64,000 nucleotides of DNA from Marmoricola sp. Leaf446. Lineage in GTDB: Bacteria; Actinomycetota; Actinomycetes; Propionibacteriales; Nocardioidaceae. The translations under genes and the position numbers were made by a program. The DNA lies in NCBI RefSeq assembly GCF_001424755.1, contig NZ_LMRF01000005.1:62001-126000 (forward strand). The letters run 5' to 3'. Below the pieces are notes generated by a model that did no database searches, was not told where the DNA came from, and saw only the letters and a list, made by a program, of their open reading frames with translations. Shown here one piece after another: positions 28,771 to 53,437 of the stretch (within the stretch, counting starts at the first letter, position 1; every line of letters starts with the position of its first letter).

Positions 28771-28927
28771 GTGGCAGAAGTGCCCGCTCGACGCTCCTGG
28801 GCGCACCACAAGTGCCTGGTCGTCGTCCCCACGGTGACCACAAGTGCCCGGTCGACGTCCCCACGGTGACCACAACTGCCCGGTCGGCGCTCCCCGGCGG
28901 GCGCGGACTGCCCGGTCGCGCGCTAGG
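28771..28927 (+). repeat. 32-nt tandem repeats, right array
   Basis: Four full copies start at 28786, 28818, 28850 and 28882 (GGTCG...TGCCC units), with partial copies at both ends; the middle two agree at 30 of 32 positions. The array lies just upstream of the lipoprotein start and runs into the stop codon of the MetF gene. It is oriented opposite to the related array at 27551-27674. Confidence 0.87.
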
Positions 28928-29819
28928 CGAGCTCGGCGAGGAGCTTCTGGCGCCAGGCCTCGGTCTCCGCGACCTGGTTGAAGGTGAAGACGTGGAGGCC
29001 CTCGATGCCGGCGGTGGGCTGGGCGGCCACCACCGCGCAGTCGCGCAGGAAGCGTTCGCCGGTGAAGCCGCCCGGGGCGGCGAGGCGAGCGAAGGTGCCC
29101 TTGTGCTTGGCCAGGAAGCGGGTGGACTCCCCCACCCCGATCTTGGTCGCCATGGTCAGCAGCTTGGCCCGGTCGATCGGGCCGGGCATCCCGAGCAGCA
29201 GCGGCATCGTGATGCCGCGCAGCCGCATCCGGCCGACCCAGTCGCGGATGGTGGCGGCGTCGAAGGTCAGGTTGCTGACGACGTGGGTGGCGTGGCGCCG
29301 CTTGTCCCACATCGCCTGGACGGTCAGGTCGTCGGCGATCGTGGGGTGGCTCTCGGGATAGCCGGCGATGCCGACGTGGGTGAACGGGTCGGCCAGCGTC
29401 GCGAGGTCCTCGAGCAGGCTGAAGGCGTCGGTGTAGTCGCCGGCCGGCTCGGCGTCGCCGCCCGGCACGAAGACCGCGGAGATGCCGGCGGCGCGGAGCC
29501 GGGCCCGGATGTCGACCAGCTCGGCGTGGTCGCGGACCATGCGGGCGGCGAGGTGGGGCACGACGGCGTACCCGTGGCCGGCGAGGGTCTCGCTCAGCGC
29601 CAGCGTCGCCTCGAGCCCCTTGCCCGGCGACGCGGTCACCGTCACCGCGACGTCGGTGGGCACCGCGGCGACCACCTTGTCCTCGGTGGTCGCGGTCGGG
29701 AGCACCTCGTAGCGGGCGTGCTCGAGCAGCCGGCGCATGGCCTGCTCCCGGCTCGCCCGGTGGCCGCGCTGGCCGCGCTGGACACGACGTACGCCGGTGG
29801 GGATCTTCACGGTGGACAC
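28923..29819 (-). CDS. metF: methylenetetrahydrofolate reductase (MetF family)
   Basis: 298 residues from GTG 29819, overlapping the DUF1638 gene by 13 nt. It has the TIM-barrel MetF pattern: VAVTVTASPGKGLEATL near the start, AVFVPGGDAEPAGDYTDA, HVGIAGYPESHP and the FTFNQVAETEAWR end. It interconverts methyl-THF and methylene-THF with FAD. As last gene of the corrinoid methyltransferase operon it most likely runs in the oxidative direction on methyl-THF produced from betaine (inference), rather than for methionine synthesis. Confidence 0.85.
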   Translation of the reverse strand: MSTVKIPTGVRRVQRGQRGHRASREQAMRRLLEHARYEVLPTATTEDKVVAAVPTDVAVTVTASPGKGLEATLALSETLAGHGYAVVPHLAARMVRDHAELVDIRARLRAAGISAVFVPGGDAEPAGDYTDAFSLLEDLATLADPFTHVGIAGYPESHPTIADDLTVQAMWDKRRHATHVVSNLTFDAATIRDWVGRMRLRGITMPLLLGMPGPIDRAKLLTMATKIGVGESTRFLAKHKGTFARLAAPGGFTGERFLRDCAVVAAQPTAGIEGLHVFTFNQVAETEAWRQKLLAELA

Positions 29820-30490
29820 AGGGCCTCCTCGGGGAGCAGCGACCGCAGGGCCAGCATCAGCCCGTCGGTGCCGGTGGTCAGGACCTGCAGCGGCAGCCCG
29901 AGGCGGTCCGCGGCATCCAGGGCGAGCGGCCGCAGCTCGGCCAGCTCGGTCGCGTCGTCGCTCTGGGCCAGCCACACGACGCGGGTGTAGTGGCCGAAGT
30001 AGGCGTCCAGCAGCTCGGGGTGACGGTCCAGGCCGAGCTCTTGCTCGACGGTCCGCGCGAACGAGCGCACCAGGAAGTCGGTCAGCAGGTAGGTGCCCGG
30101 CTGGTCCTCGAGGAGGGTCTCGACGCGGATCGCCCCGGCGAAGACGTCGTAGCAGTGCAGGCCGGCCAGGCGGCGTACGTCGAGCCGCTCGCACACCGCG
30201 TCGAGGGCGCCGTAGGTGCCGCAGTCGGCGTACCCCACCACCACCGCGTCGTACGCCGGACGCAGCCGTGCGACGAGGGTCTCCACCTCGCCGGCGATGC
30301 GGTCGGGCCGGTTGTGGAGCAGCGGCGGCAGCGGGTGGACGTCGACCGGCCACCCCTGGGCGGAGACGACCCGCGCGGCCGGATGGGCGATCGCCCCGCA
30401 GGCGACCAGCGCGGCGCGACCCTCACCCCGGGAAGGAGAGCTGGTCGACGAACCGGTCGTTGAACTCGGGACGGTCCGAGAGCTCGACAT
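29807..30490 (-). CDS. DUF1638 protein
   Basis: 227 residues if it starts at ATG 30490. I chose this because it is the only standard start codon in frame before the conserved region and has a strong GGAGGAGG site upstream; this gives a 68-nt overlap with the activator gene. Conserved DUF1638 features follow: ALVACGAIAHP, VVVGYADCGTYGALD, GLHCYDVFAG and TYLLTDFLVRSF. Several cysteines and histidines could bind metal or corrinoid. The family repeatedly occurs with MttB-type methyltransferases and corrinoid activators, but its function is unknown. It is probably translationally coupled to the activator. Confidence 0.8.
   Translation of the reverse strand: MSSSRTVPSSTTGSSTSSPSRGEGRAALVACGAIAHPAARVVSAQGWPVDVHPLPPLLHNRPDRIAGEVETLVARLRPAYDAVVVGYADCGTYGALDAVCERLDVRRLAGLHCYDVFAGAIRVETLLEDQPGTYLLTDFLVRSFARTVEQELGLDRHPELLDAYFGHYTRVVWLAQSDDATELAELRPLALDAADRLGLPLQVLTTGTDGLMLALRSLLPEEALCPP

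Positions 30491-33288: not shown

Positions 33289-33289
<1 letters not shown>
32354..33289 (-). CDS. methyltetrahydrofolate:corrinoid methyltransferase (pterin-binding)
   Basis: 311 residues from ATG 33289, starting in the TGATG junction with the corrinoid gene. It is a dihydropteroate-synthase-like barrel: IIGERLNPTGRRIFQ, VDINM-type segment DVLDINMGVPLVDE, PICIDSSVVEAL, and NMTCGASNVSFGMPGR. These match MetH pterin domains, AcsE and MtgA/MtvA-type enzymes. Expected reaction: moves the methyl group from methyl-Co(III) corrinoid protein to tetrahydrofolate. The C-terminal 25 residues are an alanine/lysine tail. Confidence 0.9.
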
Positions 33290-33950
<661 letters not shown>

Positions 33951-33954
<4 letters not shown>

Positions 33955-34733
33955 GTCGCGCCTTCCGTGGGGGTGCCGGGCTGGAGCCGCCTCGAGAGCG
34001 TCCGGGCGTGGTGGACCAGGAGCTGTCCGACCTCCTCGGCGCGCTGCTCCAGCCGCGCCGTGGGACCGGACACACCGACCGCGGCGACCACGTCGTCGTC
34101 GGGGCCGAAGACAGGGGCGGCGACGCCGGAGAGCCCGATCTCGAGCTCGTCGTGGGTGACGGCGTAGCCGTGCTCGCGCACCCACTCCAGGTCCCACTCG
34201 AGGTCGGATCGCAGCGTGATGGTCTGGTCGGTCGGGGCGGCCAGACGGCCCTCGGGCAGCTCGACCTGCTTCCAGGCGAGCAGCACCTTGCCGAGCGCCG
34301 AGCAGTGGAGCGGCACCTCGACGTCGTTCCAGTTCACCGCGCCCAGCAGGTAGGTGCCGTCGACCTGGGCGACGTGCTCGAGCCGGCCACCGTTGGCCAC
34401 GGCCAGGTGGGAGGTCTCGCGGGTCTCCTCGCCCAGCTGCTCGAGCATCGGCAGCGCGAGCCGGGCCAGCTGCTGGGTGCGGTCGTGGCGGGCGGCGTAG
34501 AGCACGAAGAGCGGGCCGCCGCGGTAGGCCCCGGGACCGGTGCGCTCGACCAGGCGGCCGCGCTCCAGCGCGGCGAGCAGCCGGGAGGTGGTCGAGCGGG
34601 CCAGCCCGAACTCCTCGGTGAGCTCACCGAAGGTGACCGGGCCGTCGGCCTCGACGATGCGCGTCAGCAGGGCGGCGGCGCGGTCGACCGCCTGGGTCCC
34701 GCTGGTGCCCTCGCCACTCCGGTCGCCCGTCAC
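33951..34733 (-). CDS. IclR-family regulator of the betaine methyltransferase genes
   Basis: 260 residues from GTG 34733. The start is set by where IclR homology begins (GTQAVDRAAALLTRIVE); a much longer open frame upstream has no such similarity. The winged HTH contains VTFGELTEEFGLARSTTSRL, and the effector domain has HCSALGKVLLAW and DDELEIGLSGVAAP-like segments (HDELEIGLSGVAAPVF). It is first in the minus-strand operon and divergent from the MttB-family gene; the palindrome at 34784-34813 is its likely site. The effector is probably betaine or a related compound (inference). Confidence 0.88.
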
Positions 34734-34783
34734 GCTTGACCGCCCTCCGCGGCTAGGTCCAAGGTTGTCCCACGCGGGATTCC

Positions 34784-34813
34784 CATGATGTGGATCACGT
34801 TGACCACATGGTG
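34784..34813. promoter_or_regulatory. palindromic operator between divergent IclR/corrinoid and MttB operons
   Basis: ATGTGG (34788-34793) and CCACAT (34804-34809) are an exact dyad with a 10-nt spacer; extended to 10-bp arms it matches at 8 of 10. It lies midway in the 197-nt divergent intergenic region, 51 nt from the IclR start and 118 nt from the MttB start, so one bound dimer pair could control both directions. A TAGGTT -10-like hexamer follows at 34818. Confidence 0.65.
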
Positions 34814-34930: not shown

Positions 34931-36391
34931 ATGTTCCGCAACCGGATGCCCCACTACGAGGTGCTCTCCGCCGACGCCATGGCCACGCTCGACAAGGGCT
35001 GGCGCCGGCTGGTCTCGGAGCTGGGCGTGGAGTTCATGAGCCAGCGCGCGCTCGACCTGCTCGCCGCCGAGGGCCAGCAGGTCGAGGGCGACAACGTGAA
35101 GTTCGACCCCGACTGGATCCTGGCCCAGGTCGCGAAGGCGCCCCGCGAGTTCGACCTGCAGGCCCGCAACCCCGAGCACACCGTCCACGTCGGCGGCGAC
35201 GCGATGGCCTTCGGCGCGGTCTACGGCCCGCCGTTCGTCCGGCAGGGCGACGTACGCCGCGACGCGACGATGGAGGACTTCCGCAACTTCACCAAGCTGG
35301 CCCAGGTCTTCCCGGTCCTCGACTCCGCGGGCGGCGTGATCTGCGAGCCCAACGACACCCCGCTCGACAGCCGCCACCTCGACATGACCTACGCGCTGGC
35401 CACGCTGACCGACAAGCCGTTCATGGGCAACGTCGTCTCGGGCCCCAACGCCCGCGACACCATCGAGCTGACCTCGATCCTGCTCGGCGGGTCGGCGGGC
35501 CGCGAGGCCGGCCGGGCCAGCATGGAGCAGACCCCGGCGCTGATCTCGCTGATCAACTGCAACTCCCCGCTGCGGTGGGACGACCGGATGCTCGACTCGC
35601 TCTTCGAGTACGCCGAGGCCAACCAGGCCGTCGTGCTCACGCCGTTCATCCTGATGGGCGCGATGTCGCCGGTGACCATCCCGGCGGCGCTGGTGCAGCA
35701 GATCGCCGAGGCGCTGACCGGCATCGCGCTGGCGCAGACCATCCGCCCGGGCTGCCCGGTCGTGTTCGGGTCGTTCCTGTCCAACATCGACATGCAGTCG
35801 GGATCGCCCACCTTCGGCACGCCCGAGTCGGGCATGGGCCTGCTCTGCACCGGTCAGATCGCACGCCACTTCGGGCTGCCGTTCCGCTCCGGCGGCACGC
35901 TGACCTCCTCGCAGGTGCCGGACGCGCAGGCCGGCTACGAGGCGCTGATGACGCTGCTGCCGACCTTCCTGGCCGGCACCAACTGGGTGATGCACTCGGC
36001 CGGCTGGCTCGAGGGCGGCCTGGTCGCGGGCTACGAGAAGTTCATCGTCGACGTCGAGCTGCTGCAGATGATGCGCGCCGAGTTCACCCCGCTCGAGATC
36101 GACGAGGCCTCGCTGGCGTTCGGCGCCCACGAGGAGGTCGGCGCGGGCGGCCACTTCCTGGGCGCGATGCACACCATGGAGCGGTTCCGCACCTGCTTCT
36201 ACCGGCCGCTGCTGTCCTCCTCGGAGAACTACGAGAAGTGGTCGCGCAACGGCGGGCTGGACGCCGCGGCCCGCGCCTCGAAGATCTACGCCGACCGGCT
36301 GGAGTCCTACGAGCAGCCGCCCCTCGACGAGGCCGTCCGGGAGGAGATGGAAGAGTTCGTCGTACGCCGTCGCAAGGAGCTCGGGGACTGA
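34931..36391 (+). CDS. MttB-family methyltransferase, non-pyrrolysine (glycine betaine MtgB-like)
   Basis: 486 residues from ATG 34931 with GAGGAG upstream; a GTG at 34790 would add unrelated sequence across the operator. The sequence fits the trimethylamine methyltransferase superfamily along its length (GWRRLVSELGVEFMS, AFGAVYGPPFVRQG, NCNSPLRWDDRML, GSFLSNIDMQSGSPTFGTPE, MHSAGWLEGGLVAGYEKF). There is no in-frame amber codon, so it belongs to the pyrrolysine-free branch that includes glycine betaine methyltransferase MtgB. Expected role: methyl transfer from betaine to Co(I) corrinoid, leaving dimethylglycine. Neighbouring choline oxidation, betaine transport and dimethylglycine genes support betaine over other quaternary amines. 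Confidence 0.87.
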   Translation: MFRNRMPHYEVLSADAMATLDKGWRRLVSELGVEFMSQRALDLLAAEGQQVEGDNVKFDPDWILAQVAKAPREFDLQARNPEHTVHVGGDAMAFGAVYGPPFVRQGDVRRDATMEDFRNFTKLAQVFPVLDSAGGVICEPNDTPLDSRHLDMTYALATLTDKPFMGNVVSGPNARDTIELTSILLGGSAGREAGRASMEQTPALISLINCNSPLRWDDRMLDSLFEYAEANQAVVLTPFILMGAMSPVTIPAALVQQIAEALTGIALAQTIRPGCPVVFGSFLSNIDMQSGSPTFGTPESGMGLLCTGQIARHFGLPFRSGGTLTSSQVPDAQAGYEALMTLLPTFLAGTNWVMHSAGWLEGGLVAGYEKFIVDVELLQMMRAEFTPLEIDEASLAFGAHEEVGAGGHFLGAMHTMERFRTCFYRPLLSSSENYEKWSRNGGLDAAARASKIYADRLESYEQPPLDEAVREEMEEFVVRRRKELGD

Positions 36392-37287
36392 TGGTCACAC
36401 CTGCGTCCACCAACGCCGGACCACCGTCCGGCGACTTCGTGCTCGCGCTCGACTGCCCCGACCGGCCCGGCATCGTGCACGCGGTCACGGGCTTCCTGGT
36501 GCGCCACGGCGGCAACATCGTGGAGAGCCAGCAGTTCGGCGACCGGCTCAACGGGCGCTTCTTCATGCGCATCGACTTCGCGATGACCACGCCGCCCCGG
36601 GACCGGCCGACGGTGGAGCAGCTGCGGACGGACTTCGCCGCGGTGGCCGAGACGTTCGAGATGACCTTCGAGCTGTGGGACGCGGTGACGCCGTACCGCA
36701 CCCTGATCATGGTCAGCAAGCACCTGCACTGCCTCAACGACCTGCTCTTCCGGCACTCGACCGGGTCGCTGCACGTGGACATCCCGGTGGTGGTCTCCAA
36801 CCACCGCGACGCCGAGCCGCTGGTGCGCTCCCACGGCCTGGAGTTCCGCCACATCCCGGTCACGGCGGCGAGCAAGGCCGACGCCGAGGCCGAGCTGATG
36901 GCCCTGCACGAGGAGCTCGACATCCACCTCGTGGTGCTGGCGCGCTACATGCAGGTGCTCTCCGACGACGTCTGCCGCCGACTCTCGGGCCAGGCGATCA
37001 ACATCCACCACTCGTTCCTGCCGAGCTTCAAGGGCGCCAAGCCCTACCACCAGGCCTTCGACCGCGGCGTGAAGCTCATCGGCGCGACCGCGCACTACGT
37101 CACCGCCGACCTCGACGAGGGCCCCATCATCGAGCAGGACGTCATCCGCGTCGACCACAACCACGACCAGGACCAGCTGGTCGCGGCCGGTCGCGACGTC
37201 GAGGCCGCGGTGCTCTCGCGGGCCGTGCGCTGGCACAGCGAGTCGCGGGTGCGCCTCGACGGCCACCGCACGGTGGTCTTCCGCTGA
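36391..37287 (+). CDS. purU: formyltetrahydrofolate deformylase
   Basis: 298 residues; the ATG shares one base with the MttB stop (TGATG). An N-terminal ACT domain (LDCPDRPGIVHAVTGFL, about residues 15-90) precedes a formyltransferase-type catalytic domain with NIHHSFLPSFKGAKPYHQ and TADLDEGPIIEQD, holding the conserved Asn, His and Asp. It hydrolyses 10-formyl-THF to formate and THF. Coupling to the MttB gene suggests it regenerates THF and vents excess one-carbon units from betaine demethylation. Confidence 0.93.
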   Translation: MVTPASTNAGPPSGDFVLALDCPDRPGIVHAVTGFLVRHGGNIVESQQFGDRLNGRFFMRIDFAMTTPPRDRPTVEQLRTDFAAVAETFEMTFELWDAVTPYRTLIMVSKHLHCLNDLLFRHSTGSLHVDIPVVVSNHRDAEPLVRSHGLEFRHIPVTAASKADAEAELMALHEELDIHLVVLARYMQVLSDDVCRRLSGQAINIHHSFLPSFKGAKPYHQAFDRGVKLIGATAHYVTADLDEGPIIEQDVIRVDHNHDQDQLVAAGRDVEAAVLSRAVRWHSESRVRLDGHRTVVFR

Positions 37288-44236: not shown

Positions 44237-45339
44237 CCGCCACCGACGCCCGGCCCACCCCCGACGCCACCGGCCGCACCGGCGGGGCCGGCCTCGAGGT
44301 CCGTGACCTGTGGAAGATCTTCGGCCCCAAGGCCGACAGGATCATCGGCACGCCGGACGCCGAGCTCTCGCGCGCCGACCTCAAGGCCAAGACCGGCTGC
44401 GTGGTGGGCGTCAAGGACGTCTCCTTCGACGTCGCGCCGGGCGAGGTGTTCGTGGTGATGGGCCTCTCCGGCTCGGGCAAGTCCACGTTGGTGCGCTGCC
44501 TGACCCGGCTGATCGAGCCCACCCACGGCACCGTGCGGATCGGCGACGACGAGGTGACCAGCTGCTCGGAGTCCCAGCTGCGCGAGCTGCGCCGCCACCA
44601 GGTCTCGATGGTGTTCCAGCACTTCGGGCTGCTGCCCCACAAGCAGGTCATCGACAACGTCGCCTACGGCCTCGAGGTCCGCGGGATGAGCAAGAAGGAG
44701 CGGCGCGCCAAGGCCGGCGAGGTCGTCGACCTAGTGGGTCTCTCGGGCTACGAGACCAGCTACCCCGACCAGCTCTCCGGCGGCATGCAGCAGCGCGTCG
44801 GCCTGGCGCGGGCGCTGGCCGGCGACCCGTCGATGCTGCTCTTCGACGAGCCGTTCTCCGCGCTCGACCCGCTGATCCGTCGTGACATGCAGAACGAGGT
44901 CATCCGGCTGCACCGCGAGGTCGGCAAGACGATGGTCTTCATCACCCACGACCTCGCCGAGGCGCTCAAGCTCGGCGACCGGATCATGATCCTGCGCGAC
45001 GGCGAGGTGGTGCAGGTCGGCACGCCCGACGAGGTGGTGGGCGCCCCGGCCGACGACTACGTCGCCGACTTCACCTCCGACGTCCCCCGCTCCCACGTGC
45101 TGACGCTGAAGTGGGTGATGCGGCCCCCGCGCCCCGACGACTCCTCCGAGGGCCCGGTGATGAGCTCCTCGACCATCGTGCGCGAGGCCGCCCAGGCGGC
45201 GCTGGCCTCCGACCACCCGGTGCGCGTCGTCGACGACGGCGAGCTGGTGGGCATCGTCGACGACGACGCCATCCTGCGGGTCGTGGTCGCCGAGCAGGCC
45301 CCGCCCTCGGCCCGACAGGGGTCGGGCGAGCGCCGATGA
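44233..45339 (+). CDS. glycine betaine/choline ABC transporter ATPase (ProV/OpuAA type)
   Basis: 368 residues. Walker [16 protein letters not shown]-loop [11 protein letters not shown], signature [15 protein letters not shown], Walker [21 protein letters not shown] and switch [13 protein letters not shown] all match quaternary amine transporters (QAT family). The N-terminal WKIFGPK motif is typical of ProV. A single CBS-like half (about 290-360, [18 protein letters not shown]) may sense ionic strength or nucleotide. It overlaps betA upstream and the permease downstream by 4 nt. Confidence 0.92.
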
Positions 45340-47393
45340 GCACGGCCACCGACACCACGACCCCGGCGGTCGACACGACCCCCGCGGCGTCTCCCGAGCC
45401 GGAGGCGCGCAGCGGTCCGTCGCGCTGGGTGCTGGTCGTCGCGGTCGTCGTCGGCTGGGTGCTGCTGTGGCTCGTCGTGCGCGGGCAGGACACGCTCCAG
45501 CTCGCGGGCCGCGAGCGCACCGACGTGATGCGCTGGCTGGGCGAGTTCCGCGACGGCGTCATCGCGAGCCGCGACACCAACGCGCTCGTCGCCTTCACCG
45601 GAGCCGTCGGCGAGGGGATCCGCACGCTGTTCGGCGAGCTCCAGCAGGTGTTCTCGCTCCCGGCCTTCCCGCGTCCGGTGCCCCAGATCGGCTGGCTCGG
45701 CGTGGTCGCCCTCGCGACCTGGGCCGGGACGGCCGTGGCCAACCTGCGCATCGCGGTGCTGGTCGCGGTCACCTTCGTGTCCTACGGCGTCCTCGGCTAC
45801 TGGGAGCAGGGCATCGACCTGCTGCTCGTCACCGGCCTGTCCGTCGCCGCGGTCGTCGTGATCGGGATGCCGCTCGCCGTCGCCGTCGGCACCAGCCGAC
45901 GCGCCCGGGCCGTGATCACGCCGGTCCTCGACGCGATGCAGACCATGCCGACCTTCGTCTACCTGCTGCCGGTGGTGCTCTTCTTCGGCATCGGCGTCTC
46001 GAGCGCGATCGTGTGCACCCTGGTCTACGCGCTGCCGCCGCTCATCCGCATCGGCGGCTACGGCATCAGCGCCGTCTCGACCTCGGCCATCGAGGCCACC
46101 GACTCGACCGGGCAGACGAGCTGGCAGCGACTCCGCAAGGTGCAGCTGCCCCTGGCCCGCACGACCATCGTGGTCGGCCTCAACCAGAGCACGATGGCGG
46201 CCCTGTCGATGGCCATCATCGCGTCGTACGTCGACGGGCCGGGGCTCGGCGAGCCGGTGCTGTCGGCGCTGATCCGCAACGACGTGGGCGCCTCCCTGGT
46301 GCCCGGGCTGCTGATCGTGCTGACCGCGATCATGCTCGACCGCGCCACCACGGCCGCCAGCGAGCGGGCCGAGCTGGCCGCGCGGGGCCGGGGGCTGCGC
46401 GGACGCGCCCGCACGGTGGTGCTCGGCGTCGGCGGCGTCGTCGTCCTGGTCTGCGTCTACCTCTCCCGCACCTACCTCCCGCTCGCGGCCTGGCCCGAGA
46501 CCTCCCTGGGCCGCGACCTGGCCGACACCCTCGACTCGGCCACGGACGCGGTCGTGGGGGTGCTGGGCGGCGCCGGCGAGGCGCTGCGCAACGCGATCTC
46601 CTACGGCCTGCTCAACCCGATGCAGTCGCTGCTCGCCGAGTCGCCGTGGTGGCTCGCGGCGAGCGCCCTCGTGCTGGTCTCCGCCGCGCTGGGCGGCCTG
46701 CGGGCCGTCGTGCCCACGGTGGTCTTCGGCACCGGCATCCTGCTCCTCGGCCTGTGGCACAGCACCATGCTGACCCTGACGATGGTGCTGGTCGCGACCG
46801 TCCTGGTCATGGTGATCGCCCTGGTCCTCGGCGTGTGGATGGCCCGCAGCCGCCGGGTCGACCTGCTGCTGCGGCCGCTGCTCGACGCCGGCCAGACCAT
46901 CCCGGCCTTCTGCTACCTGATCCCGGTCCTGGCGCTCTTCGGCTTCGGGCGGTTCGCGGCCATCGCGGCCGCCATCGTCTACGCCGCACCCGCGGCCATC
47001 AAGCTCGTCGCCGACGGCGTCCGCGCCGTGCCCGAGACGACACTGGAGGCCTCGCGCTCGACCGGCACCACGTCGTGGCAGGAGATCACCCAGGTGCAGC
47101 TGCCCATGGCCCGCGGCTCGCTCGCCCTGGCCGCCAACCAGGGGCTGCTCTACGTGCTGGCCATGATCGTGATCGGTGGCCTGGTCGGCGCCCAGGCGCT
47201 GGGCTACGACGTCGTGCTCGGCTTCTCGCGCAGCGAGGAGTGGGGGCTCGGCGCGGCCGCGGGCATCACCATCGTGCTGCTCGGGCTGATGCTCGACCGG
47301 GTGGCCCGGGCGGCCGCCGACCGCACCGGCGGCCGCGTCGACGCACGGAGCCGCTTCACGCTGCCGCGCCGGCTCTCACCGACCCGGACCTGA
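45336..47393 (+). CDS. double-length ProW-type permease (two fused permease domains)
   Basis: 685 residues from ATG 45336. Two complete binding-protein-dependent permease domains are arranged in tandem. The first has [20 protein letters not shown] and the second [20 protein letters not shown] as their EAA loops, each near a [22 protein letters not shown] helix. Most ProW proteins have one such domain and work as homodimers, so this fusion would supply both halves of the pore and allow them to diverge. An extra N-terminal segment with one helix precedes the first domain. Confidence 0.9.
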
Positions 47394-47524
47394 CCGACCC
47401 CCGACCCCCGACCCGGCGCGGCGCCGTACGCCGCAGCACCATCCCCGCTCCAACCCCAGCTCCACCCCGGCACCACCGGAACCACCCCCATCCACCGCAC
47501 CACCGCACACACCTGGAGACCACG

Positions 47525-48511
47525 ATGAGGACGAGCCTGAAGCGGTCCGGGAGGCTCGCCGCCGCAGCGGCGTGCGCCACCCTGGCCCTCTCCGCCTGCG
47601 GCAGCAGCTCGATCGACGAGCAGACCAGCGAGAACAAGGAGAACGCCGCCGCCTCGGGCGACTGCGGCGAGCTCAACATGGCCGTCAACCCGTGGGTCGG
47701 CTACCAGGCCGACGCCTACGTCGTCGGCACGCTGGCCAAGGAGAAGTTCGGCTGCACCGTGAACTACAAGGACCTCAAGGAGGACGTCTCCTGGCAGGGC
47801 TTCGGCACCGGGGAGGTCGACCTCGTCATCGAGGACTGGGGCCACCCCGACCTGGAGAAGAAGTTCTTCGAGGGCGAGGGCGACGGCAGCGCCCAGGACC
47901 TCGGCCCGACCGGCAACGAGGGGATCATCGGCTGGTACGTCCCGCCGTGGCTCGCCGAGAAGTACCCCGACATCCTCGACCACGAGAACCTCGACAAGTA
48001 CGCCCAGCAGTTCAAGACCTCCGAGTCCGGCGGCAAGGGCCAGTTCCTCGGCGCCGACCCGTCCTACGTCCAGTTCGACGAGGCCATCGTCAGCAACCTG
48101 GACCTGGACTTCAAGGTCGTCTTCTCCGGCTCCGAGGCCGCCAGCATCGAGGCGTTCGAGAAGGCCGAGAAGGACAAGGAGTTCCTGATCGGCTACTTCT
48201 ACGAGCCGCAGTGGCTCTTCGCCGAGGTACCGCTGAAGAAGGTCGAGCTGCCCGACTACGAGGACGGGTGCCAGGACGACCCCGCCGAGGTCGCCTGCGA
48301 CTACCCCGTGACCACGCTCAAGAAGGTCGCCTCCACCTCGTGGGTGGAGGAGGGCGGCCCCGCCGTCGACCTGGTGAAGAACTTCGAGTGGACCAACGAC
48401 GACCAGAACGAGGTCGCGAAGTACATCGCCAAGGACAAGATGGAGCCCGAGGCGGCGGCCCAGAAGTGGATCGAGGAGAACCCCGACAAGGTCGAGGCCT
48501 GGCTCGGCTGA
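47525..48511 (+). CDS. glycine betaine/choline-binding lipoprotein (OpuAC domain)
   Basis: 328 residues from ATG 47525 with a GGAG site. Lipoprotein signal ends LALSAC (cysteine about residue 25). The OpuAC fold shows tryptophan/tyrosine-rich ligand segments (MAVNPWVGYQ, IEDWGHPD, GWYVPPWLAEK, YFYEPQWLF) suited to an aromatic cage for a quaternary ammonium group. It completes the transporter with the upstream ATPase and permease. The 131-nt gap before it is a cytosine-rich low-complexity stretch with no gene. Confidence 0.92.
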   Translation: MRTSLKRSGRLAAAAACATLALSACGSSSIDEQTSENKENAAASGDCGELNMAVNPWVGYQADAYVVGTLAKEKFGCTVNYKDLKEDVSWQGFGTGEVDLVIEDWGHPDLEKKFFEGEGDGSAQDLGPTGNEGIIGWYVPPWLAEKYPDILDHENLDKYAQQFKTSESGGKGQFLGADPSYVQFDEAIVSNLDLDFKVVFSGSEAASIEAFEKAEKDKEFLIGYFYEPQWLFAEVPLKKVELPDYEDGCQDDPAEVACDYPVTTLKKVASTSWVEEGGPAVDLVKNFEWTNDDQNEVAKYIAKDKMEPEAAAQKWIEENPDKVEAWLG

Positions 48512-48527
48512 CGCCGGGCGGGTCCGG

Positions 48528-49094
48528 GTGAGCATCACCTCCGAGCCGTGGCCGCACCCGGACCCGACCCGGTCGCGGCTGCGGCTGGTGCAGGTGCCGG
48601 CGCCGCTCCTGCACGCGCTCGCCCGGGGCGCGGCGGGAGCGGCGGACCCCGTCGTGGGCGGCTACGTCGCCGACCCCGGGCTGCGGCCCCTGTGGGGACT
48701 GCGCAGCCGTCAGGTGACGGCCCGGCCCGACGACGCGGCGTGGGTGACCCGGCTTGTCGTGGTGCCGGGCGTCGCGGTGCCGGTCGGCGTGGCCGGCTTC
48801 CACGGCCCGCCCGACGACGCCGGGATGGTCGAGGTGGGCTACCGCACCGACCCCGCGCACCGCCGCCGGGGGCACGCCCGGCACGCGCTGCAGACCCTCC
48901 TCGCCGTGGCCGCCGCCCACCCGGACGTGCGGGTGGTGCGCGCCACCGTCAGCCCCGACAACCACGTCTCGCGCGCCCTCGTCGAGGCCCACGGCTTCGT
49001 CGAGACCGGTGAGCAGTGGGACGAGGAGGACGGGCTCGAGATCGTGCTCGAGCGGCCCGCCGCGGTGCTTGACACCCCCGAACCACCGGGGTGA
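48528..49094 (+). CDS. GNAT-family N-acetyltransferase
   Basis: 188 residues from GTG 48528, 16 nt after the binding-protein stop. Acetyl-CoA motif A is VEVGYRTDPAHRRRGHARHAL, followed by VRATVSPDNHVSRALVEAHGF. It resembles RimJ/RimL-like acetyltransferases. The acceptor is unknown; its place between betaine transport and dimethylglycine dehydrogenase genes may reflect co-regulation only. Confidence 0.83.
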   Translation: MSITSEPWPHPDPTRSRLRLVQVPAPLLHALARGAAGAADPVVGGYVADPGLRPLWGLRSRQVTARPDDAAWVTRLVVVPGVAVPVGVAGFHGPPDDAGMVEVGYRTDPAHRRRGHARHALQTLLAVAAAHPDVRVVRATVSPDNHVSRALVEAHGFVETGEQWDEEDGLEIVLERPAAVLDTPEPPG

Positions 49095-49107
49095 CGATGG
49101 AGTCGCG

Positions 49108-49142
49108 TTCCGCATAGCGCACCGCGTTGCACATGACGCAAC
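49108..49142. promoter_or_regulatory. operator-like inverted repeats upstream of the dimethylglycine dehydrogenase gene
   Basis: Two dyads fall in the 73-nt gap: TTCCGCATAGCG (49108-49119), which looks like one side of an IclR-type TTCCGCA-TGCGGAA site, and an exact GTTGC-N7-GCAAC (49126-49142). Either could bind one of the two IclR proteins of the island. Confidence 0.45.
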
Positions 49143-49167
49143 TCAGACTCGAACTCCGGGAGGGCCC

Positions 49168-51690
49168 GTGGCCACCGTCCCCAGCACCGCCAACGTCGTC
49201 GTGATCGGCGCCGGCATCGTCGGCAACAGCCTGGTCCACCACCTCACCCGCCTGGGGTGGAAGGACGTCGTCCAGCTCGACAAGGGAGCCCTGCCCAACC
49301 CGGGCGGCTCGACCGGTCACGCGTCCAACTTCATCTTCCCGGTGGACCACTCCCGGGAGATCACGGACCTGACCATGGACTCGGTCCGGCAGTACCAGGA
49401 GATGGGCGTCTTCACCCAGTCCGGCGGCTTCGAGGTCGCTCGCACCGAGGAGCGCATGGAGGAGCTGCGGCGCCGGATGTCCAGCGCCAAGGCGTGGGGC
49501 ATCGACTCCGAGCTGGTCACCCCGGCGCAGGTCGTCGAGAAGGTGCCGTTCCTCGACCCCGACCAGATCATCGGCGCGTTCTGGACGCCCACCGTCGGCG
49601 TCGTCGACAGCCTCCGCGCCGGCACGATCATGCGCGAGCAGGCGCTGGCCACCGGCGAGCTCACCGTCGTCGCGGGGGCCGAGGTCGAGGACCTGGTCGT
49701 CGAGGACGGCGAGCACGGACGGCGCATCCGGAGCGTCGTCACCGACCAGGGCACCATCGAGGCGTCGTACGTCGTGATCGCCGCCGGCGTCTGGAGCCCC
49801 AAGCTCGGCGACATGGCCGGCGTGCGGATCGCGCTGACCCCGGCGGTGCACCAGATGATCTCGGTCGGCCCGTGCCCGCAGCTGGCGGAGACCGACGGCG
49901 AGATCTCGTTCCCGATCATCCGGGACATGGACACCTTCTGCTACGAGCGCCAGCACGGTGCCGACATGGAGGTCGGCTCCTACGCCCATCGGCCGATCCT
50001 GCACGAGCCCGAGGAGATCCCCTCGATCGAGCAGGCCCGGCTCAGCCCGACCGAGATGCCGTTCACCGAGGACGACTTCGACCAGCAGCTCGAGGAGGCC
50101 CTGGAGCTGATGCCGGAGCTGCTCGGCGCCGAGGGCGCGGAGATCCGCTACGCCATCAACGGCCTGCTCTCGCTGACCGCCGACGGCAACCCCATCCTGG
50201 GCGAGAGCGAGGTCAAGGGCCTGTGGGTCTCGGCCGCGGTCTGGATCAAGGAGGGTCCGGGCGTCGGACGCGCGGTGGCGGAGTGGATGACCCACGGCCA
50301 CTCCGAGATCGACCTGCACCACAGCGACATCGCCCGCTTCCACCCCCACGAGACCACCCGCGAGCACGTCCGGGCGCGCACCAGCGAGGCGTTCAACAAG
50401 ACCTACGGGATCGTCCACCCCGGCGAGCAGTGGGGCTCGGACCGCGAGGTCCGCTACTCCCCGATGGCCGACTCGCAGAAGGCGCTCGGCGCCGTCTTCC
50501 ACGAGACCGTCGGCTGGGAGCGGCCGTTCTGGTACGACTCCAACGCCGACCTGCTGGAGACGTACGGCGACCGGGTGATGCCCCGCGAGCACGAGTGGGA
50601 CAGCCGCTGGTGGAGCCCGATCATCAACGCCGAGCACCTCGCGATGCGCGAGCACGCCGGCGTCGTCGACCTGACCGCGTTCTCGATCTTCGACATCACC
50701 GGTCCGGGCGCGCTCGCCTCGGTGCAGCGCACCTGCGTCGCCCAGTGCGACGTCGCGGTCGGCAAGGTCGTCTACACGCCGGTGCTCGACGCCAAGGGCG
50801 GGTTCCTCTCCGACCTGACCGTGATGCGTCTCGGCGAGGACCGCTTCCGCGTCGTCACCGGTGGCGCCCACGGCATGGCCGACCGCAAGCACTTCACCGA
50901 CCGCCTCGTCGACGGCGCCGAGCTGGCCGACGTCACCGAGGAGGTCTCCACGATCGGCATCTGGGGCCCGAAGGCCCGCGAGGTGCTCGCCTCGCTCTCC
51001 TCCGACGACCTCAGCGACGGCGGCTTCGGCTTCCTGACCTCGCGCGAGATCGACGTCAAGGGCGTCGACGCCCCGGTCCTGGCCTCGCGGATCTCCTACG
51101 TCGGCGACCTCGGCTGGGAGCTCTACGTGCCGTTCTCGGCGGCGGCCTCGCTGTGGGACGCGCTGCTCACGGCCGGACGTGAGCACGGCGTGCGGCCGGT
51201 GGGGATCGGCGTCTACGGCACCACCGGCCGCCTCGAGAAGGGCTACCGCGCCTTCGGCGCCGAGCTCGACGCGGAGCGGACCATCGTGGAGACCGGGATG
51301 CAGCGGCCCAAGGTCAAGGCGGCCGACTTCCTCGGCCGGGAGGCCTACCTCGCCCAGCGGGAGGCGGCGCCGGCCGCGGTGCTGTGCACGCTGACCGTCG
51401 ACGACCACACCTCGGCCAGCGGCGTGAAGCGCTACATGCTCGGCGGCGAGCCGATCCTGACCACCGACGGGCAGCTGCTCACCGACGGCCACGGCCACCA
51501 CTCCTACGTCACCAGCGCCGGGTCGGCCCCCTCCCTGGGCAAGCACGTGCTGCTGGCGTTCCTGCCGCCCGAGGAGGCCACGATCGGCAACCGGCTCGCC
51601 GTGTCCTACATGGAGGAGCTCTACCCGGTCACGGTCGGCTCGGTGGACGCGACGCCGCTGCTCGACCCCGACAACGAGCGGCTGCGCTGA
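49168..51690 (+). CDS. dimethylglycine/sarcosine dehydrogenase-like flavoprotein (DAO + GcvT domains)
   Basis: 840 residues from GTG 49168 after GGGAGGG. Residues 1-400 are a D-amino-acid-oxidase-type FAD domain (NVVVIGAGIVGNSLVHHL; H51 in GSTGHASNF aligns with the histidine that binds FAD covalently in dimethylglycine enzymes). The FAO_M linker and C-terminal GcvT domains follow (REHAGVVDLTAFSIFDITG, GDLGWELYVPF, GIGVYGTTGRLEKGY), which bind THF and capture formaldehyde as methylene-THF. The ETF pair directly downstream marks it as a dehydrogenase rather than an oxidase. Dimethylglycine is the likely substrate because betaine demethylation is encoded nearby. Confidence 0.87.
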   Translation: MATVPSTANVVVIGAGIVGNSLVHHLTRLGWKDVVQLDKGALPNPGGSTGHASNFIFPVDHSREITDLTMDSVRQYQEMGVFTQSGGFEVARTEERMEELRRRMSSAKAWGIDSELVTPAQVVEKVPFLDPDQIIGAFWTPTVGVVDSLRAGTIMREQALATGELTVVAGAEVEDLVVEDGEHGRRIRSVVTDQGTIEASYVVIAAGVWSPKLGDMAGVRIALTPAVHQMISVGPCPQLAETDGEISFPIIRDMDTFCYERQHGADMEVGSYAHRPILHEPEEIPSIEQARLSPTEMPFTEDDFDQQLEEALELMPELLGAEGAEIRYAINGLLSLTADGNPILGESEVKGLWVSAAVWIKEGPGVGRAVAEWMTHGHSEIDLHHSDIARFHPHETTREHVRARTSEAFNKTYGIVHPGEQWGSDREVRYSPMADSQKALGAVFHETVGWERPFWYDSNADLLETYGDRVMPREHEWDSRWWSPIINAEHLAMREHAGVVDLTAFSIFDITGPGALASVQRTCVAQCDVAVGKVVYTPVLDAKGGFLSDLTVMRLGEDRFRVVTGGAHGMADRKHFTDRLVDGAELADVTEEVSTIGIWGPKAREVLASLSSDDLSDGGFGFLTSREIDVKGVDAPVLASRISYVGDLGWELYVPFSAAASLWDALLTAGREHGVRPVGIGVYGTTGRLEKGYRAFGAELDAERTIVETGMQRPKVKAADFLGREAYLAQREAAPAAVLCTLTVDDHTSASGVKRYMLGGEPILTTDGQLLTDGHGHHSYVTSAGSAPSLGKHVLLAFLPPEEATIGNRLAVSYMEELYPVTVGSVDATPLLDPDNERLR

Positions 51691-52463
51691 TGGCCGACGT
51701 GCTGGTCTGCGTCAAGCGCGTCCCGGACTTCTCCGGCGAGGTGCTGCTCAGCGACGACGCACAGTCCGCCGACGCCCGCTACGTCGGCCACACCCTGTCC
51801 AACCACGACCTGTGCGCGGTCGAGACGGCCGTGCAGCTCGCGGCCGCGACCGGCGGGTCGGCGACGGTGCTGACGGTCGGCTCGGCCGACGCGGTCGAGC
51901 AGCTGCGCACGGCGCTGGGCGTCGGCTGCGCGGCGGCGGTGCTCGTCGAGGCCGACCCGGTCACCCTCGGTCCGGCCGACGTGGCACGGGAGGTCGCCGC
52001 GGTGGTGGCCGACCACGAGGCGTCGCGCGGAGCGTCGTACGACCTGGTGCTGCTGGGCAACGACGCCGCCGACTCCGGCGACTTCCAGGTCGGCATCCGG
52101 CTGGCCCGGCTGCTCGACCGGCCCGTCGTCACCGGGGTGCAGACCGTCACCCTCGACGGCGACCGGGCGACGCTGGTCAGCGACGTGGCCGAGGGGCGCG
52201 AGACCTACCGGGTGCCCACGCCCGCGGTGGTGACGGTCCTGGAGGGCGGCGTCGAGCCGCGCTACCCCACCATCACCGGCCGGATGAAGGCCAAGAAGAT
52301 CCCCGTCGAGGAGCGTGCCCTCAGCGCCGAGCCCGTGGGCAGCGGCCGGGTGCGGCTGCGCGTGCCCGCCCCGCAGTCGTCGACCTCGACCCTGCTCGGC
52401 GAGGGACCCGAGGCGGCGCCCGCCGTCGTCGACCTGCTGCAGCAGCTGGGGGTGGCCCGATGA
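51690..52463 (+). CDS. etfB: electron transfer flavoprotein beta subunit
   Basis: 257 residues, ATG in the TGATG junction with the dehydrogenase gene. ETF-beta pattern: VLVCVKRVPDFSGEV start, LLGNDAADSGDFQVG, GRETYRVPTPAVVTV and MKAKKIPVEE near the C-terminus. It is more similar to the divergent ETFs linked to trimethylamine/dimethylglycine catabolism than to housekeeping ones (impression). Coupled to etfA by a 4-nt overlap. Confidence 0.9.
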   Translation: MADVLVCVKRVPDFSGEVLLSDDAQSADARYVGHTLSNHDLCAVETAVQLAAATGGSATVLTVGSADAVEQLRTALGVGCAAAVLVEADPVTLGPADVAREVAAVVADHEASRGASYDLVLLGNDAADSGDFQVGIRLARLLDRPVVTGVQTVTLDGDRATLVSDVAEGRETYRVPTPAVVTVLEGGVEPRYPTITGRMKAKKIPVEERALSAEPVGSGRVRLRVPAPQSSTSTLLGEGPEAAPAVVDLLQQLGVAR

Positions 52464-53437
52464 TCGTGGTCTACGTCGAGACGGTGCGCGGCGTCGTCGC
52501 GGAGGTCTCCCTGGAGGCCGTCGCCTTCGCCCGCACCCTGGCCGCCGCCGGCGGGGGCATCCCCGTCGACGCCGTGGTCTGCGGACCGCTGGGCGACGCC
52601 GGGCCCAAGGAGCTCGCCGAGGCCGGGGTGCGCACGGTGCTGCACGCCGACACGGGCGAGTTCGACGTCTTCTCCGGTGCCGCCCACGCCCGGGCGGTGC
52701 TCGCGGCGCGCGAGCAGACCCGGGCGGTCGTGCTGATGGGCGGCGGAACCAACCGCGGCAACGACGTGATGGCGCGCGTGGCCACCGAGCTCGACGTCGC
52801 GATGGCCGCCAACGTCGTCGCCTTCGAGGGCCTCTCCCCCTTCACCGTCACCCGCCAGGTCGTCGGCGGCGCGGCGCTGGAGGAGGTGCGGCTCGGCTCG
52901 CGCCCGGCCGTCTTCAGCGTCGCCGGCCACGCGGTCGAGGCCACGCCCGCCGAGACCGCCGGACCGGCCACGCTCACCCCGCTCGCCGTCGCCCTCGAGC
53001 CCGGCGACCTGACCGTCCAGGCGGTCTCGGTCCAGCCCGTCGACACCGAGGCGGCCGGCAACCTGAAGTCGGCCCGCGTCGTCGTCGGCGCCGGGCGCGG
53101 CGCCGGCGGGCCGGAGGGCTTCGGCGACGCGCTCGAGCTCGCCGAGCTGCTCGGCGGCCAGCTCGGGGTCTCCCGCGTGGTCACCTCGCTCGGCTGGCGG
53201 CCCCACCACGAGCAGGTCGGCCAGACCGGCAGCCGGATCTCCCCGGAGGTCTACATCCCCTGCGGCATCTCCGGCGCGATCCAGCACTGGGCCGGCTGCG
53301 CCAGCTCCAAGGTGATCCTCGCCGTCAACACCGACGCCGACGCGCCGATGATGACCAAGGCGACGTACGCCGTGGTGGGCGACATGCACGAGGTCGTCCC
53401 CGCCGTCAACGAGGAGATCCGGCGGCGCCGGGGGTGA
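52460..53437 (+). CDS. etfA: electron transfer flavoprotein alpha subunit
   Basis: 325 residues. The C-terminal FAD domain is well preserved: SARVVVGAGRGAGGPEGF, TSLGWRPHHEQVGQTG, YIPCGISGAIQHWAGC and ILAVNTDADAPMM. It accepts electrons from the dehydrogenase encoded two genes upstream and passes them, through beta/alpha ETF, to an ETF:quinone oxidoreductase not found in this window. Confidence 0.92.
   Translation: MIVVYVETVRGVVAEVSLEAVAFARTLAAAGGGIPVDAVVCGPLGDAGPKELAEAGVRTVLHADTGEFDVFSGAAHARAVLAAREQTRAVVLMGGGTNRGNDVMARVATELDVAMAANVVAFEGLSPFTVTRQVVGGAALEEVRLGSRPAVFSVAGHAVEATPAETAGPATLTPLAVALEPGDLTVQAVSVQPVDTEAAGNLKSARVVVGAGRGAGGPEGFGDALELAELLGGQLGVSRVVTSLGWRPHHEQVGQTGSRISPEVYIPCGISGAIQHWAGCASSKVILAVNTDADAPMMTKATYAVVGDMHEVVPAVNEEIRRRRG

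What the first reader, a model, noticed from the sequence alone, without database searches (positions are those of the whole stretch)
28923..53437. Corrinoid (B12)-dependent betaine demethylation built into an aerobic choline-degradation island
Directly visible: MttB-family enzyme without an amber codon, corrinoid protein with DVHDIG, pterin methyltransferase, RACo-type activator, DUF1638, MetF, PurU, then betB, betA, a quaternary-amine ABC transporter, a DMG dehydrogenase-like enzyme and ETF. MtgB-type betaine methyltransferases are best known from anaerobes; aerobic actinobacteria are usually expected to use oxidase or homocysteine-dependent routes. Here the module appears to feed methyl groups into THF oxidation and formate release, giving a full choline-to-sarcosine pathway. 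I infer the pathway; no enzyme is proven.
Basis: partly seen in the sequence, partly recalled or inferred. Interest (0 to 1): 0.9.

Follow-up and report, generated by a model that had tools for sequence, protein, structure and literature searches.

The report
B12-dependent betaine demethylation island
A soil actinobacterium carries, next to its choline-oxidising genes, a gene set that most likely strips a methyl group from glycine betaine using vitamin B12 and burns it to formate; the chemistry is known from other bacteria, but this actinobacterial version has not been tested.

Summary
The corrinoid arm is metF–DUF1638–RACo–mtgD–mtgC–iclR, divergent from mttB–purU (28923-37287). The choline arm is iclR–betB–betA–ABC transporter–DMG dehydrogenase–ETF (39964-53437). 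Of related loci with enough flank, 61 of 61 keep mtgC, mtgD and RACo beside mttB, and 49 of 65 have betA downstream; 11 of the 16 without it have a DMG-dehydrogenase-type gene instead. All 80 orthologues keep the four betaine-pocket residues proposed for D. hafniense MtgB, which vary in many paralogues. An inverted repeat lies upstream of mttB in 72 of 80 loci. Best reading: B12-dependent glycine betaine demethylation with folate-linked methyl oxidation. The idea is not new: Ruegeria pomeroyi does this aerobically (2025), and Paracoccus and Sinorhizobium carry related clusters. What differs: the MttB lineage is separate from characterised MtgB, MetF is divergent, and the genome has an apparently full-length MetH, unlike R. 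pomeroyi, though other MtgBCD bacteria also have one. A GbcA-like oxygenase elsewhere in this genome is a rival, but 57 of 64 mttB-bearing genomes sampled in the family lack it. Nothing here measures activity.

The parts
28923..29819 (-). metF-like: divergent methylene-THF reductase, proposed to oxidise CH3-THF to CH2-THF
   Evidence: PF02219 36.6 bits; nearest PDB chain 7xg9; lacks the SFEFFPP-like segment of the genome's own canonical MetF in the alignment
29807..30433 (-). DUF1638 protein, proposed helper in corrinoid reactivation (start codon not fixed; coordinates are of the stretch scanned)
   Evidence: PF07796 79.7 bits; role proposed in PMC12478193
30423..32357 (-). RACo-type ATP-dependent corrinoid reductive activase with N-terminal 2Fe-2S domain (Cys 71, 77, 80, 111)
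   Evidence: PF14574, PF17651, PF17650, PF00111; nearest PDB 3zyy and 4c1n; cysteines; below the cut-off of the AcsV model, 433 of 800 bits
32354..33289 (-). mtgD/mtgA-like methylcorrinoid:THF methyltransferase
   Evidence: PF00809; NF005719 309.8 bits, above the 259 cut-off; nearest PDB 2yck; 46-48% to Paracoccus and S. meliloti mtgD
33289..33954 (-). mtgC-like corrinoid protein, DVHDIG motif at residue 102
   Evidence: PF02310 and PF02607; NF047996 MtgC 192.5 bits, below the 370 cut-off; nearest PDB 1y80; 43-47% to S. meliloti and Paracoccus MtgC
33951..34733 (-). IclR-family regulator 1, first gene of the corrinoid operon
   Evidence: PF01614 and PF09339; present in 60 of 61 loci with flank
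34784..34813 (.). Inverted repeat CATGATGTGGAAC-N3-5-GTTCCACATCATG, proposed operator between the divergent arms (window copy 20 of 26 matches)
   Evidence: 72 of 80 loci have it (19 of 26 or better) within 320 bp upstream of mttB; 10 other hits in 1,484,418 bp
34931..36391 (+). mttB-family methyltransferase without amber codon, proposed glycine betaine:corrinoid methyltransferase (mtgB-like)
   Evidence: PF06253 612 bits; 39% to DhMtgB, 45% to 4yyc; Y94/N199/R309/H345 equivalents conserved
36439..37287 (+). purU: formyl-THF deformylase with intact N..H..D motif (motif recalled)
   Evidence: TIGR00655 336 bits, above the 285.95 cut-off; sequence
37371..39194 (+). Histidine kinase, not conserved in the island
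   Evidence: PF02518 and PF00512; matched in 0 of 65 loci
39964..40758 (+). IclR-family regulator 2, head of the choline arm
   Evidence: 58 of 65 loci
40920..42401 (+). betB: aldehyde dehydrogenase, called betaine aldehyde dehydrogenase from its place before betA
   Evidence: PF00171 547.8 bits
42398..44236 (+). betA: choline dehydrogenase
   Evidence: TIGR01810 783 bits, above the 732.1 cut-off
44233..48511 (+). Quaternary-amine ABC transporter: ATPase 44233-45339, permease 45336-47393, OpuAC binding protein 47525-48511
   Evidence: PF00005, PF00528, PF04069; binding protein nearest PDB 4xz6
48528..49094 (+). GNAT acetyltransferase, role unknown, not matched in related loci
   Evidence: PF13302; 0 of 65 loci
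49168..51690 (+). Dimethylglycine dehydrogenase/oxidase (FAD plus GCV_T folate domain): DMG to sarcosine with CH2-THF
   Evidence: PF01266, PF16350, PF01571, PF08669; nearest PDB 1pj5 N,N-dimethylglycine oxidase 479 bits
51690..53437 (+). ETF beta (51690-52463) and alpha (52460-53437), proposed electron acceptor of the DMG dehydrogenase
   Evidence: PF01012 and PF00766

Best explanation
The island is a two-arm catabolic module for choline and glycine betaine. BetA and BetB oxidise choline to betaine, and betaine also enters by the OpuAC-type ABC transporter. The MttB-family protein moves one methyl of betaine to cob(I)alamin on the MtgC-like protein, giving dimethylglycine. MtgD passes the methyl to THF. 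The divergent MetF oxidises CH3-THF to CH2-THF, a housekeeping FolD would take it to 10-formyl-THF, and PurU releases formate and frees THF. RACo, with DUF1638 as helper, re-reduces cob(II)alamin that oxygen or side reactions produce. The DMG dehydrogenase and ETF take DMG to sarcosine with a second CH2-THF. IclR regulator 1 switches both halves of the corrinoid arm from an inverted repeat between them. Shown here: gene content, conservation, pocket residues, conservation of the repeat, and a cobalamin-synthesis gene (CbiJ) and MetH in the genome. Inferred: substrate, direction of flow, electron partners and regulation. FolD was not searched for.
For: Corrinoid arm conserved with mttB: raco, mtgD and mtgC 61 of 61, DUF1638 and iclR1 60 of 61, metF 57 of 61. 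betA downstream in 49 of 65; in 11 of the 16 without betA a DMG-dehydrogenase-type gene is there instead. Betaine pocket residues proposed for DhMtgB (PMC6855144) conserved in 80 of 80 orthologues, whereas many MttB paralogues show A, S, G, N, Q or T at Tyr94. DMG dehydrogenase nearest to DMG oxidase 1pj5. In 3 of 7 loci examined a further protein, identified in L014 as formate-THF ligase, lies beside mttB or purU, and this genome has such a gene elsewhere. CbiJ and haem-copper oxidase subunit I present. Related clusters in Paracoccus and S. meliloti, and the homologous system demethylates betaine in R. pomeroyi (PMC12478193). 57 of 64 mttB genomes in the family sample lack the GbcA-like rival at E 1e-90.
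Against: No activity, expression or growth data. The MttB protein does not fall inside a characterised MtgB clade. The aromatic at DhMtgB position 353 is Gly here. MtgC scores 192.5 bits against a 370 cut-off for the MtgC model. MetF is so divergent that its direction and cofactor are unknown, and it is only 24% identical to the Paracoccus cluster MetF with no match to the S. meliloti one. In this genome a GbcA-like/GbcB-like/OYE cluster could demethylate betaine oxidatively. betA is not downstream in 16 of 65 loci, and 5 of those 16 also lack a matched DMG dehydrogenase and ABC genes within the flank; in the two Asanoa loci the DMG-dehydrogenase-type gene is only 37% identical. The pocket residues come from docking, not mutagenesis.
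Confidence: 0.75

Rival explanations
1. The corrinoid arm demethylates a different quaternary or tertiary amine (proline betaine, carnitine, a choline derivative), and glycine betaine itself is demethylated by the GbcA-like Rieske oxygenase encoded elsewhere in the genome.
For: GbcA-like 407 bits with GbcB-like reductase (320 of 500 bits) and an OYE-type flavoenzyme at G000:C1; MttB phylogeny closer to uncharacterised paralogues than to MtgB; pocket position 353 differs.
Against: The Rieske protein is below the GbcA cut-off (670) and its nearest solved homologues include 3vca and 4qup, which I recall as stachydrine demethylase. Only 16 of 197 family genomes have it at E 1e-90, and 57 of 64 with mttB lack it; the overlap of 7 is about what chance gives (Fisher p 0.40). 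The four pocket residues match MtgB in 80 of 80 loci. Downstream genes are mostly betAB and DMG dehydrogenase.
Confidence: 0.15
2. Betaine is demethylated mainly by a homocysteine methyltransferase (BHMT type), and the corrinoid arm serves methionine synthesis or methyl recycling.
For: A BHMT-like protein (277 bits, cut-off 338) and a homocysteine S-methyltransferase (NF007020, 352 bits, cut-off 215) are in the genome.
Against: The BHMT-like protein is below cut-off and scores almost as high with a bifunctional homocysteine/MTHFR model. An apparently full-length MetH is present, so the corrinoid arm should not be needed for methionine. None of the genome's three PF02574 matches lies in the island. 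According to PMC12478193, the S. meliloti bhmt mutant grows on betaine when methionine is supplied.
Confidence: 0.06
3. The corrinoid arm is a scavenging or methylation route running in reverse (THF methyl to an acceptor), not a catabolic one.
For: Methyl transfers of this type are reversible (recalled); MetF direction is untested and the protein is divergent.
Against: purU lies downstream of mttB in 48 of 65 loci; DMG dehydrogenase, ETF and the uptake system are downstream; the R. pomeroyi homologues are more abundant on betaine, and mtgC is needed to consume it (PMC12478193).
Confidence: 0.04

Closest known systems
Aerobic MtgBCD of Ruegeria pomeroyi DSS-3 and relatives (PMC12478193, PNAS 2025)
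   Same: MttB-family MtgB, MtgC corrinoid protein, MtgD pterin methyltransferase, MetF2, RamA-type activase and DUF1638; aerobic; betaine to DMG with H4F-linked oxidation. The paper says that in other marine Proteobacteria the genes are often colocated, also with later demethylation steps.
   Different: In R. pomeroyi MtgC and MtgD double as a split methionine synthase in cells without MetH, and the genes are scattered; here an apparently full-length MetH exists and the parts form one island with betAB, transporter, DMG dehydrogenase, PurU and IclR regulators. MetH beside MtgBCD is not unique: the paper counts 28 of 239 marine metH genomes with MtgBCD. The MetF here is divergent. SPO2108 and SPO2134 sequences were not compared.
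MtgB/MtgC/MtgA of Desulfitobacterium hafniense (2QNE, 9YCE)
   Same: Non-pyrrolysine MttB homologue with cognate corrinoid protein and methylcorrinoid:THF methyltransferase; Y94, N199, R309 and H345 conserved.
   Different: Anaerobe; 39% identity; separate branch in the tree; position 353 aromatic there, Gly here.
S. meliloti pSymB and Paracoccus methylovorus mtg clusters (4YYC family)
   Same: ASKHA activase, mtgD, metF, DUF1638 and mtgC facing mttB; DUF1638 39-44%, RACo 33%, mtgC 43-47%, mtgD 46-48% identical.
   Different: 45-46% MttB identity, separate clade; their MetF is barely or not matched by the window's (24% to Paracoccus, no hit to S. meliloti) and has a C-terminal-domain partner gene not found here; the formyl transferase in the S. 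meliloti run gave no BLAST match to the window's PurU at E 1e-3; no betAB annotated within 9-10 kb.
Chloromethane utilisation (CmuA/CmuB/MetF2/PurU) of aerobic methylotrophs (recalled)
   Same: Aerobic corrinoid methyl transfer to THF followed by MetF- and PurU-linked oxidation.
   Different: Different methyltransferase family and substrate.

Membership tests
MtgB-type glycine betaine:corrinoid methyltransferase | PF06253 protein without an in-frame amber codon | tested here: met
   612 bits; 486-codon frame without internal stop
MtgB-type glycine betaine:corrinoid methyltransferase | Docked betaine-pocket residues Y94, N199, R309, H345 | tested here: met
   Conserved in window and 80 of 80 loci; residues from PMC6855144, mapped by taking native number = 9yce chain number minus 1, which fits all five residues
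MtgB-type glycine betaine:corrinoid methyltransferase | Aromatic residue at position 353 | tested here: not met
   Gly in the window, as in 4yyc
MtgB-type glycine betaine:corrinoid methyltransferase | Groups with characterised MtgB rather than MtpB, MtcB or MtyB | tested here: inconclusive
   Own clade (100/96), apart from the DhMtgB branch and the 4yyc clade; midpoint root; MtpB, MtcB and MtyB sequences not available
MtgB-type glycine betaine:corrinoid methyltransferase | Methylates cob(I)alamin or MtgC from glycine betaine | not testable with these tools
   Needs enzyme assay
Pyrrolysine trimethylamine methyltransferase MttB | Amber codon and score above TIGR02369 cut-off | tested here: not met
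   No amber codon; 263 of 525 bits
Glycine betaine-specific MtgC (NCBIfam NF047996/NF047995) | Score above curated cut-off | tested here: not met
   192.5 of 370 and 164.1 of 310 bits
Aerobic MtgBCD pathway (R. pomeroyi type) | mtgB, mtgC, mtgD with metF2, activase and DUF1638 | tested here: met
   All present in one locus
Aerobic MtgBCD pathway (R. pomeroyi type) | MtgC/MtgD double as split methionine synthase with MtgE in place of MetH | tested here: inconclusive
   MetH elsewhere in the genome (1269-residue frame; 855 residues scanned, TIGR02082 1282 bits), no PF02574 match in the island; dual use not excluded without a mutant
RACo corrinoid activase | 2Fe-2S, linker, middle and ASKHA C-terminal domains with four Cys | tested here: met
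   the narrower AcsV and RamA models are below cut-off, 433 of 800 and 105 of 500 bits
GbcAB glycine betaine monooxygenase | Rieske oxygenase above NF058607 cut-off | tested here: not met
   Not in the island; the genome's one PF00848 protein scores 407 of 670 bits
Betaine-homocysteine methyltransferase | Score above NF005718 cut-off | tested here: not met
   277 of 338 bits for L084

The most novel reading that the evidence does not exclude
Actinomycetota hold a distinct lineage of oxygen-tolerant, B12-dependent betaine methyltransferases, in about a third of sampled genomes of this family (64 of 197), with a dedicated divergent MetF and an IclR switch, devoted purely to methyl oxidation and uncoupled from methionine synthesis. 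It would supply the missing betaine-to-dimethylglycine step of many soil actinobacteria.
Probability: 0.5. Interest if true: 0.55.

Novelty: new variant of a known kind. Interest (0 to 1): 0.5.

Why it matters
The betaine demethylation step of actinobacteria may lack an assigned enzyme: an Arthrobacter genome paper listed the pathway as incomplete although the strain grows on betaine (PMC3534580). If this reading holds, a large group of soil bacteria links choline and betaine turnover to vitamin B12 rather than to oxygenases, and conserves the first methyl as reducing power and formate instead of releasing formaldehyde. If MetH covers methionine synthesis, it does so without the entanglement found in Ruegeria. 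The reading gives clear predictions (B12 need, mutants) that separate it from the marine system.

Tried and rejected
Chance assemblage: rejected, since the gene set recurs across loci from Nocardioides, Marmoricola, Mumia, Phycicoccus, Jatrophihabitans, Asanoa and Kineosporia, among others. Pyrrolysine MttB for trimethylamine: rejected, since there is no amber codon and TMA MttB (7xcl) lacks Arg309 and His345 equivalents. Choline as direct substrate: disfavoured, because betA is not downstream in 16 of 65 loci while 11 of these have a DMG-dehydrogenase-type gene. Shared operator linking the two arms: looked for and not found in the window, where the repeat (18 of 26 or better) was seen only between iclR1 and mttB apart from a 19 of 26 hit at 57311; in the loci, one of the 10 other hits lies about 300 bp from iclR2 (L062, 19 of 26) and one beside iclR1 of L019. 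Anticorrelation of mttB with the GbcA-like gene: none (7 both, 9 GbcA-like only, 57 mttB only, 124 neither, Fisher p 0.40, overlap read by me from the lists). MtpB, MtcB, MtyB and R. pomeroyi MtgB sequences were not obtained, so the decisive substrate tree was not possible. Papers searched for an actinobacterial version. I saw the listings and opened passages or parts of only some of the listed papers; in those I saw nothing beyond the remark in PMC12478193 that 5% of marine mtgC reads were Actinomycetota. No structure prediction was run.

Limits: neighbourhood counts use only loci with enough flank (61 of 80 upstream, 65 of 80 downstream) and tblastn of window proteins at E 1e-15, so diverged genes count as absent. 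The repeat was read off 15 sequences (window plus 14 of the 80 loci) and then counted on all 80, which is partly circular. The tree used 21 of the 80 loci and 77 of 78 rows; one 248-residue fragment, L140, was dropped. It is rooted at the midpoint, and the program flags DhMtgB for letter make-up and warns of several long branches.

Changed on rechecking: interest of the novel case lowered from 0.60 to 0.55, because PMC12478193 already reports bacteria with both MetH and MtgBCD.

Full report
Observation. Gene calling by codon-position composition and Pfam and NCBIfam scans confirm each component at the stated coordinates. Minus strand, 28923-34733: metF, DUF1638, RACo, mtgD, mtgC, iclR1. Divergent on the plus strand: mttB (34931-36391) and purU (36439-37287). 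A histidine kinase and a 769-bp gap follow, then iclR2, betB, betA, the ABC transporter, a GNAT gene, DMG dehydrogenase and ETF to 53437. The mttB frame has no amber codon. The genome (G000, 3.8 Mb, 9 contigs) has one PF06253 match and a haem-copper oxidase subunit.

Conservation. One scan of GTDB species genomes gave 461 relatives by pattern and kept the best 80 loci, 76-91% identical over the best segment. tblastn of the window's proteins against them, counted only where flank allows, gives upstream: mtgC, mtgD and raco 61 of 61, DUF1638 and iclR1 60 of 61, metF 57 of 61 (in most loci on the other strand, facing the operon). Downstream: iclR2 58, abcA 54, betB 50, betA 49, purU 48 and DMG dehydrogenase 24 of 65; the last often lies beyond the 10-kb flank. 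The kinase and GNAT genes are in 0 of 65 and so look incidental. Of 16 loci without betA, 11 (Phycicoccus and allies, Jatrophihabitans, Asanoa, one Nocardioides) carry a DMG-dehydrogenase-type gene downstream (only 37% identical in the two Asanoa loci), and 5 (L010, L028, L043, L078, L081) have none of betA, DMG dehydrogenase or the ABC genes matched downstream within the flank. The more constant theme is therefore betaine to DMG, not choline oxidation. Of seven loci whose downstream genes were called, three (L014, L020, L043) have a 559-residue protein, identified in L014 as formate-THF ligase, beside mttB or purU; this genome has such a gene on another contig.

How common. In 396 Actinomycetota genomes drawn evenly, 64 have PF06253 at E 1e-20, many of them with proteins outside the window clade. 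In 197 genomes of the window's own family, 64 have the window-type protein.

Substrate. 2QNE is D. hafniense MtgB (PMC6855144 and PMC9842639, passages), and 9yce has the same aligned sequence and is named glycine betaine methyltransferase. The residues proposed by docking to hold betaine are Y94, N199, R309 and H345, with an aromatic at 353. In the window the first four are kept and 353 is Gly. All 80 actinobacterial orthologues keep the four. Among the 12 proteobacterial plasmid copies read, the three with a corrinoid-protein gene in the fetched stretch (L095, L097, L102) and the one near betAB (L096) keep all four. Of the other eight, seven do not and L104 (a shorter, diverged copy beside phosphonate genes) does. 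Of the 40 unnamed Actinomycetota copies in the tree set, the 20 best PF06253 scorers all keep the four and 1 of the 20 others (L136) does; their surroundings were not read. A second actinobacterial paralogue (L070, G452, G208; 54-56% identical) reads NNRQ or QNRQ, so it may have another substrate. The tetrad therefore discriminates within the family, but it rests on docking, not mutagenesis.

Phylogeny. A 77-row maximum-likelihood tree, rooted at the midpoint, makes the window type one clade (100/96) across several actinobacterial families. It lies apart from the clade of 4yyc, S. meliloti and Paracoccus and from DhMtgB, in a 37-row group (97/89) with uncharacterised paralogues; its nearer join with the Leisingera-type paralogues is weak (82/19). 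Orthology with a proven MtgB is therefore not shown. Sharing of YNRH by DhMtgB, the 4yyc clade and the window clade fits retention of an ancestral betaine pocket, but MtpB, MtcB, MtyB and the R. pomeroyi copies were not available.

Partners. MtgC has DVHDIG and is 43-47% identical to proteobacterial MtgC; MtgD is 46-48% identical; RACo has the four 2Fe-2S cysteines and 3zyy as nearest PDB chain. MtgC is below the NCBIfam MtgC cut-offs and RACo below the AcsV and RamA cut-offs. MetF is divergent: it is 24% identical to the Paracoccus cluster MetF and does not match the S. meliloti one, its nearest PDB chain is 7xg9, an MTHFR whose organism the tool does not give, and it lacks the FEFFPP segment of the genome's canonical MetF (that this segment carries the catalytic Glu is recalled). 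A review (PMC13001107, passages) describes both an oxidative MTHFR subfamily and flavin-free mycobacterial ones, so cofactor and direction need assay. The DMG dehydrogenase is nearest to N,N-dimethylglycine oxidase 1pj5 (479 bits) and the binding protein to 4xz6. Apart from a gcvT-like gene, the island's DMG dehydrogenase and two short matches in one frame at C2, no GCV_T protein such as a heterotetrameric sarcosine oxidase alpha subunit was found, so the fate of sarcosine is open.

Rivals in the same genome. A GbcA-like Rieske protein (407 bits, cut-off 670) with a GbcB-like reductase and an OYE-type enzyme lies at G000:C1 about 1.66 Mb; its nearest solved relatives include 3vca and 4qup. It occurs, at E 1e-90, in 16 of 197 family genomes; 7 of these also have mttB, 57 have mttB only and 124 have neither (Fisher p 0.40). 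It cannot be the general route in the mttB-bearing species, but it could matter in this strain. A BHMT-like protein is below cut-off. A MetH (1269-residue open frame; the 855 residues scanned give 1282 bits against a 1011 cut-off) and a CbiJ are present, so B12 is probably made and methionine synthesis should not need the island's MtgC and MtgD. In R. pomeroyi, by contrast, mtgC and mtgD mutants are methionine auxotrophs. The contrast is not unique: PMC12478193 counts 28 of 239 marine metH genomes that also have MtgBCD.

Regulation. The region upstream of mttB carries a 26-position inverted repeat (19 matches or more) in 72 of 80 loci within 320 bp, against 10 other hits in 1.48 Mb. The window copy is 34784-34813, 20 of 26. 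The motif was read from 15 of these sequences first, so the count is partly circular. The eight misses are L037, L051 (which has no iclR1 match), L070, L073, L076, L078, L080 and L081. In the window it was not found at the choline arm, so the arms are probably switched separately; one locus (L062) has a weak copy about 300 bp from iclR2.

What is known. PMC12478193 (parts 1-4 of 6 read, and a find) shows by proteomics and mutants of mtgC and mtgD that an aerobic Ruegeria demethylates betaine through this machinery, names RamA, DUF1638 and MetF2, says that the genes are often colocated in other marine Proteobacteria, and mentions 5% of marine mtgC reads as Actinomycetota; its MtgB candidates rest on proteomics. 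Six paper searches listed no paper that I could see describing an actinobacterial locus; not every listed paper was opened, and the library holds only open-licence papers. I therefore rate this a new variant of a known kind: the same chemistry, a distinct enzyme lineage, a compact island in an actinobacterium, a MetH that may free it from methionine synthesis, and wide occurrence in this family.

Noticed in passing
window 27546-27650 and 28778-28895: Two arrays of about 32-bp tandem repeats flank a gene without a Pfam match that looks like a lipoprotein (27699-28748); their units share a TGCCCGGTCG-like core in opposite orientation.
   Followed up: no
G000:C1 about 1659-1664 kb (L099 8430-12911): GbcA-like Rieske oxygenase, GbcB-like reductase and OYE-type flavoenzyme in a row, a possible second betaine or stachydrine demethylation route.
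   Followed up: partly
L070 about 19.0 kb; G452:C62:4263-5702; G208:C87:84800-86242: Second mttB paralogue (54-56% identical) with NNRQ or QNRQ in place of YNRH, possibly with another substrate.
   Followed up: partly
L014 11447-13126: Formate-THF ligase between mttB and purU; a protein of the same length and near-identical N-terminus in L020 and L043. It sits next to a formyl-THF deformylase of opposite effect.
   Followed up: partly
window 28923-29819: MetF homologue lacking the FEFFPP segment of canonical MetF, with the same absence in the eight related loci aligned, and on the opposite strand in most loci.
   Followed up: partly
window 59986-63193: Two 2OG-Fe(II) oxygenase-family genes flanking an adenosine deaminase-family gene, an apparent small cluster.
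   Followed up: no
window 39195-39963: 769-bp stretch without a called gene between the histidine kinase and iclR2.
   Followed up: no
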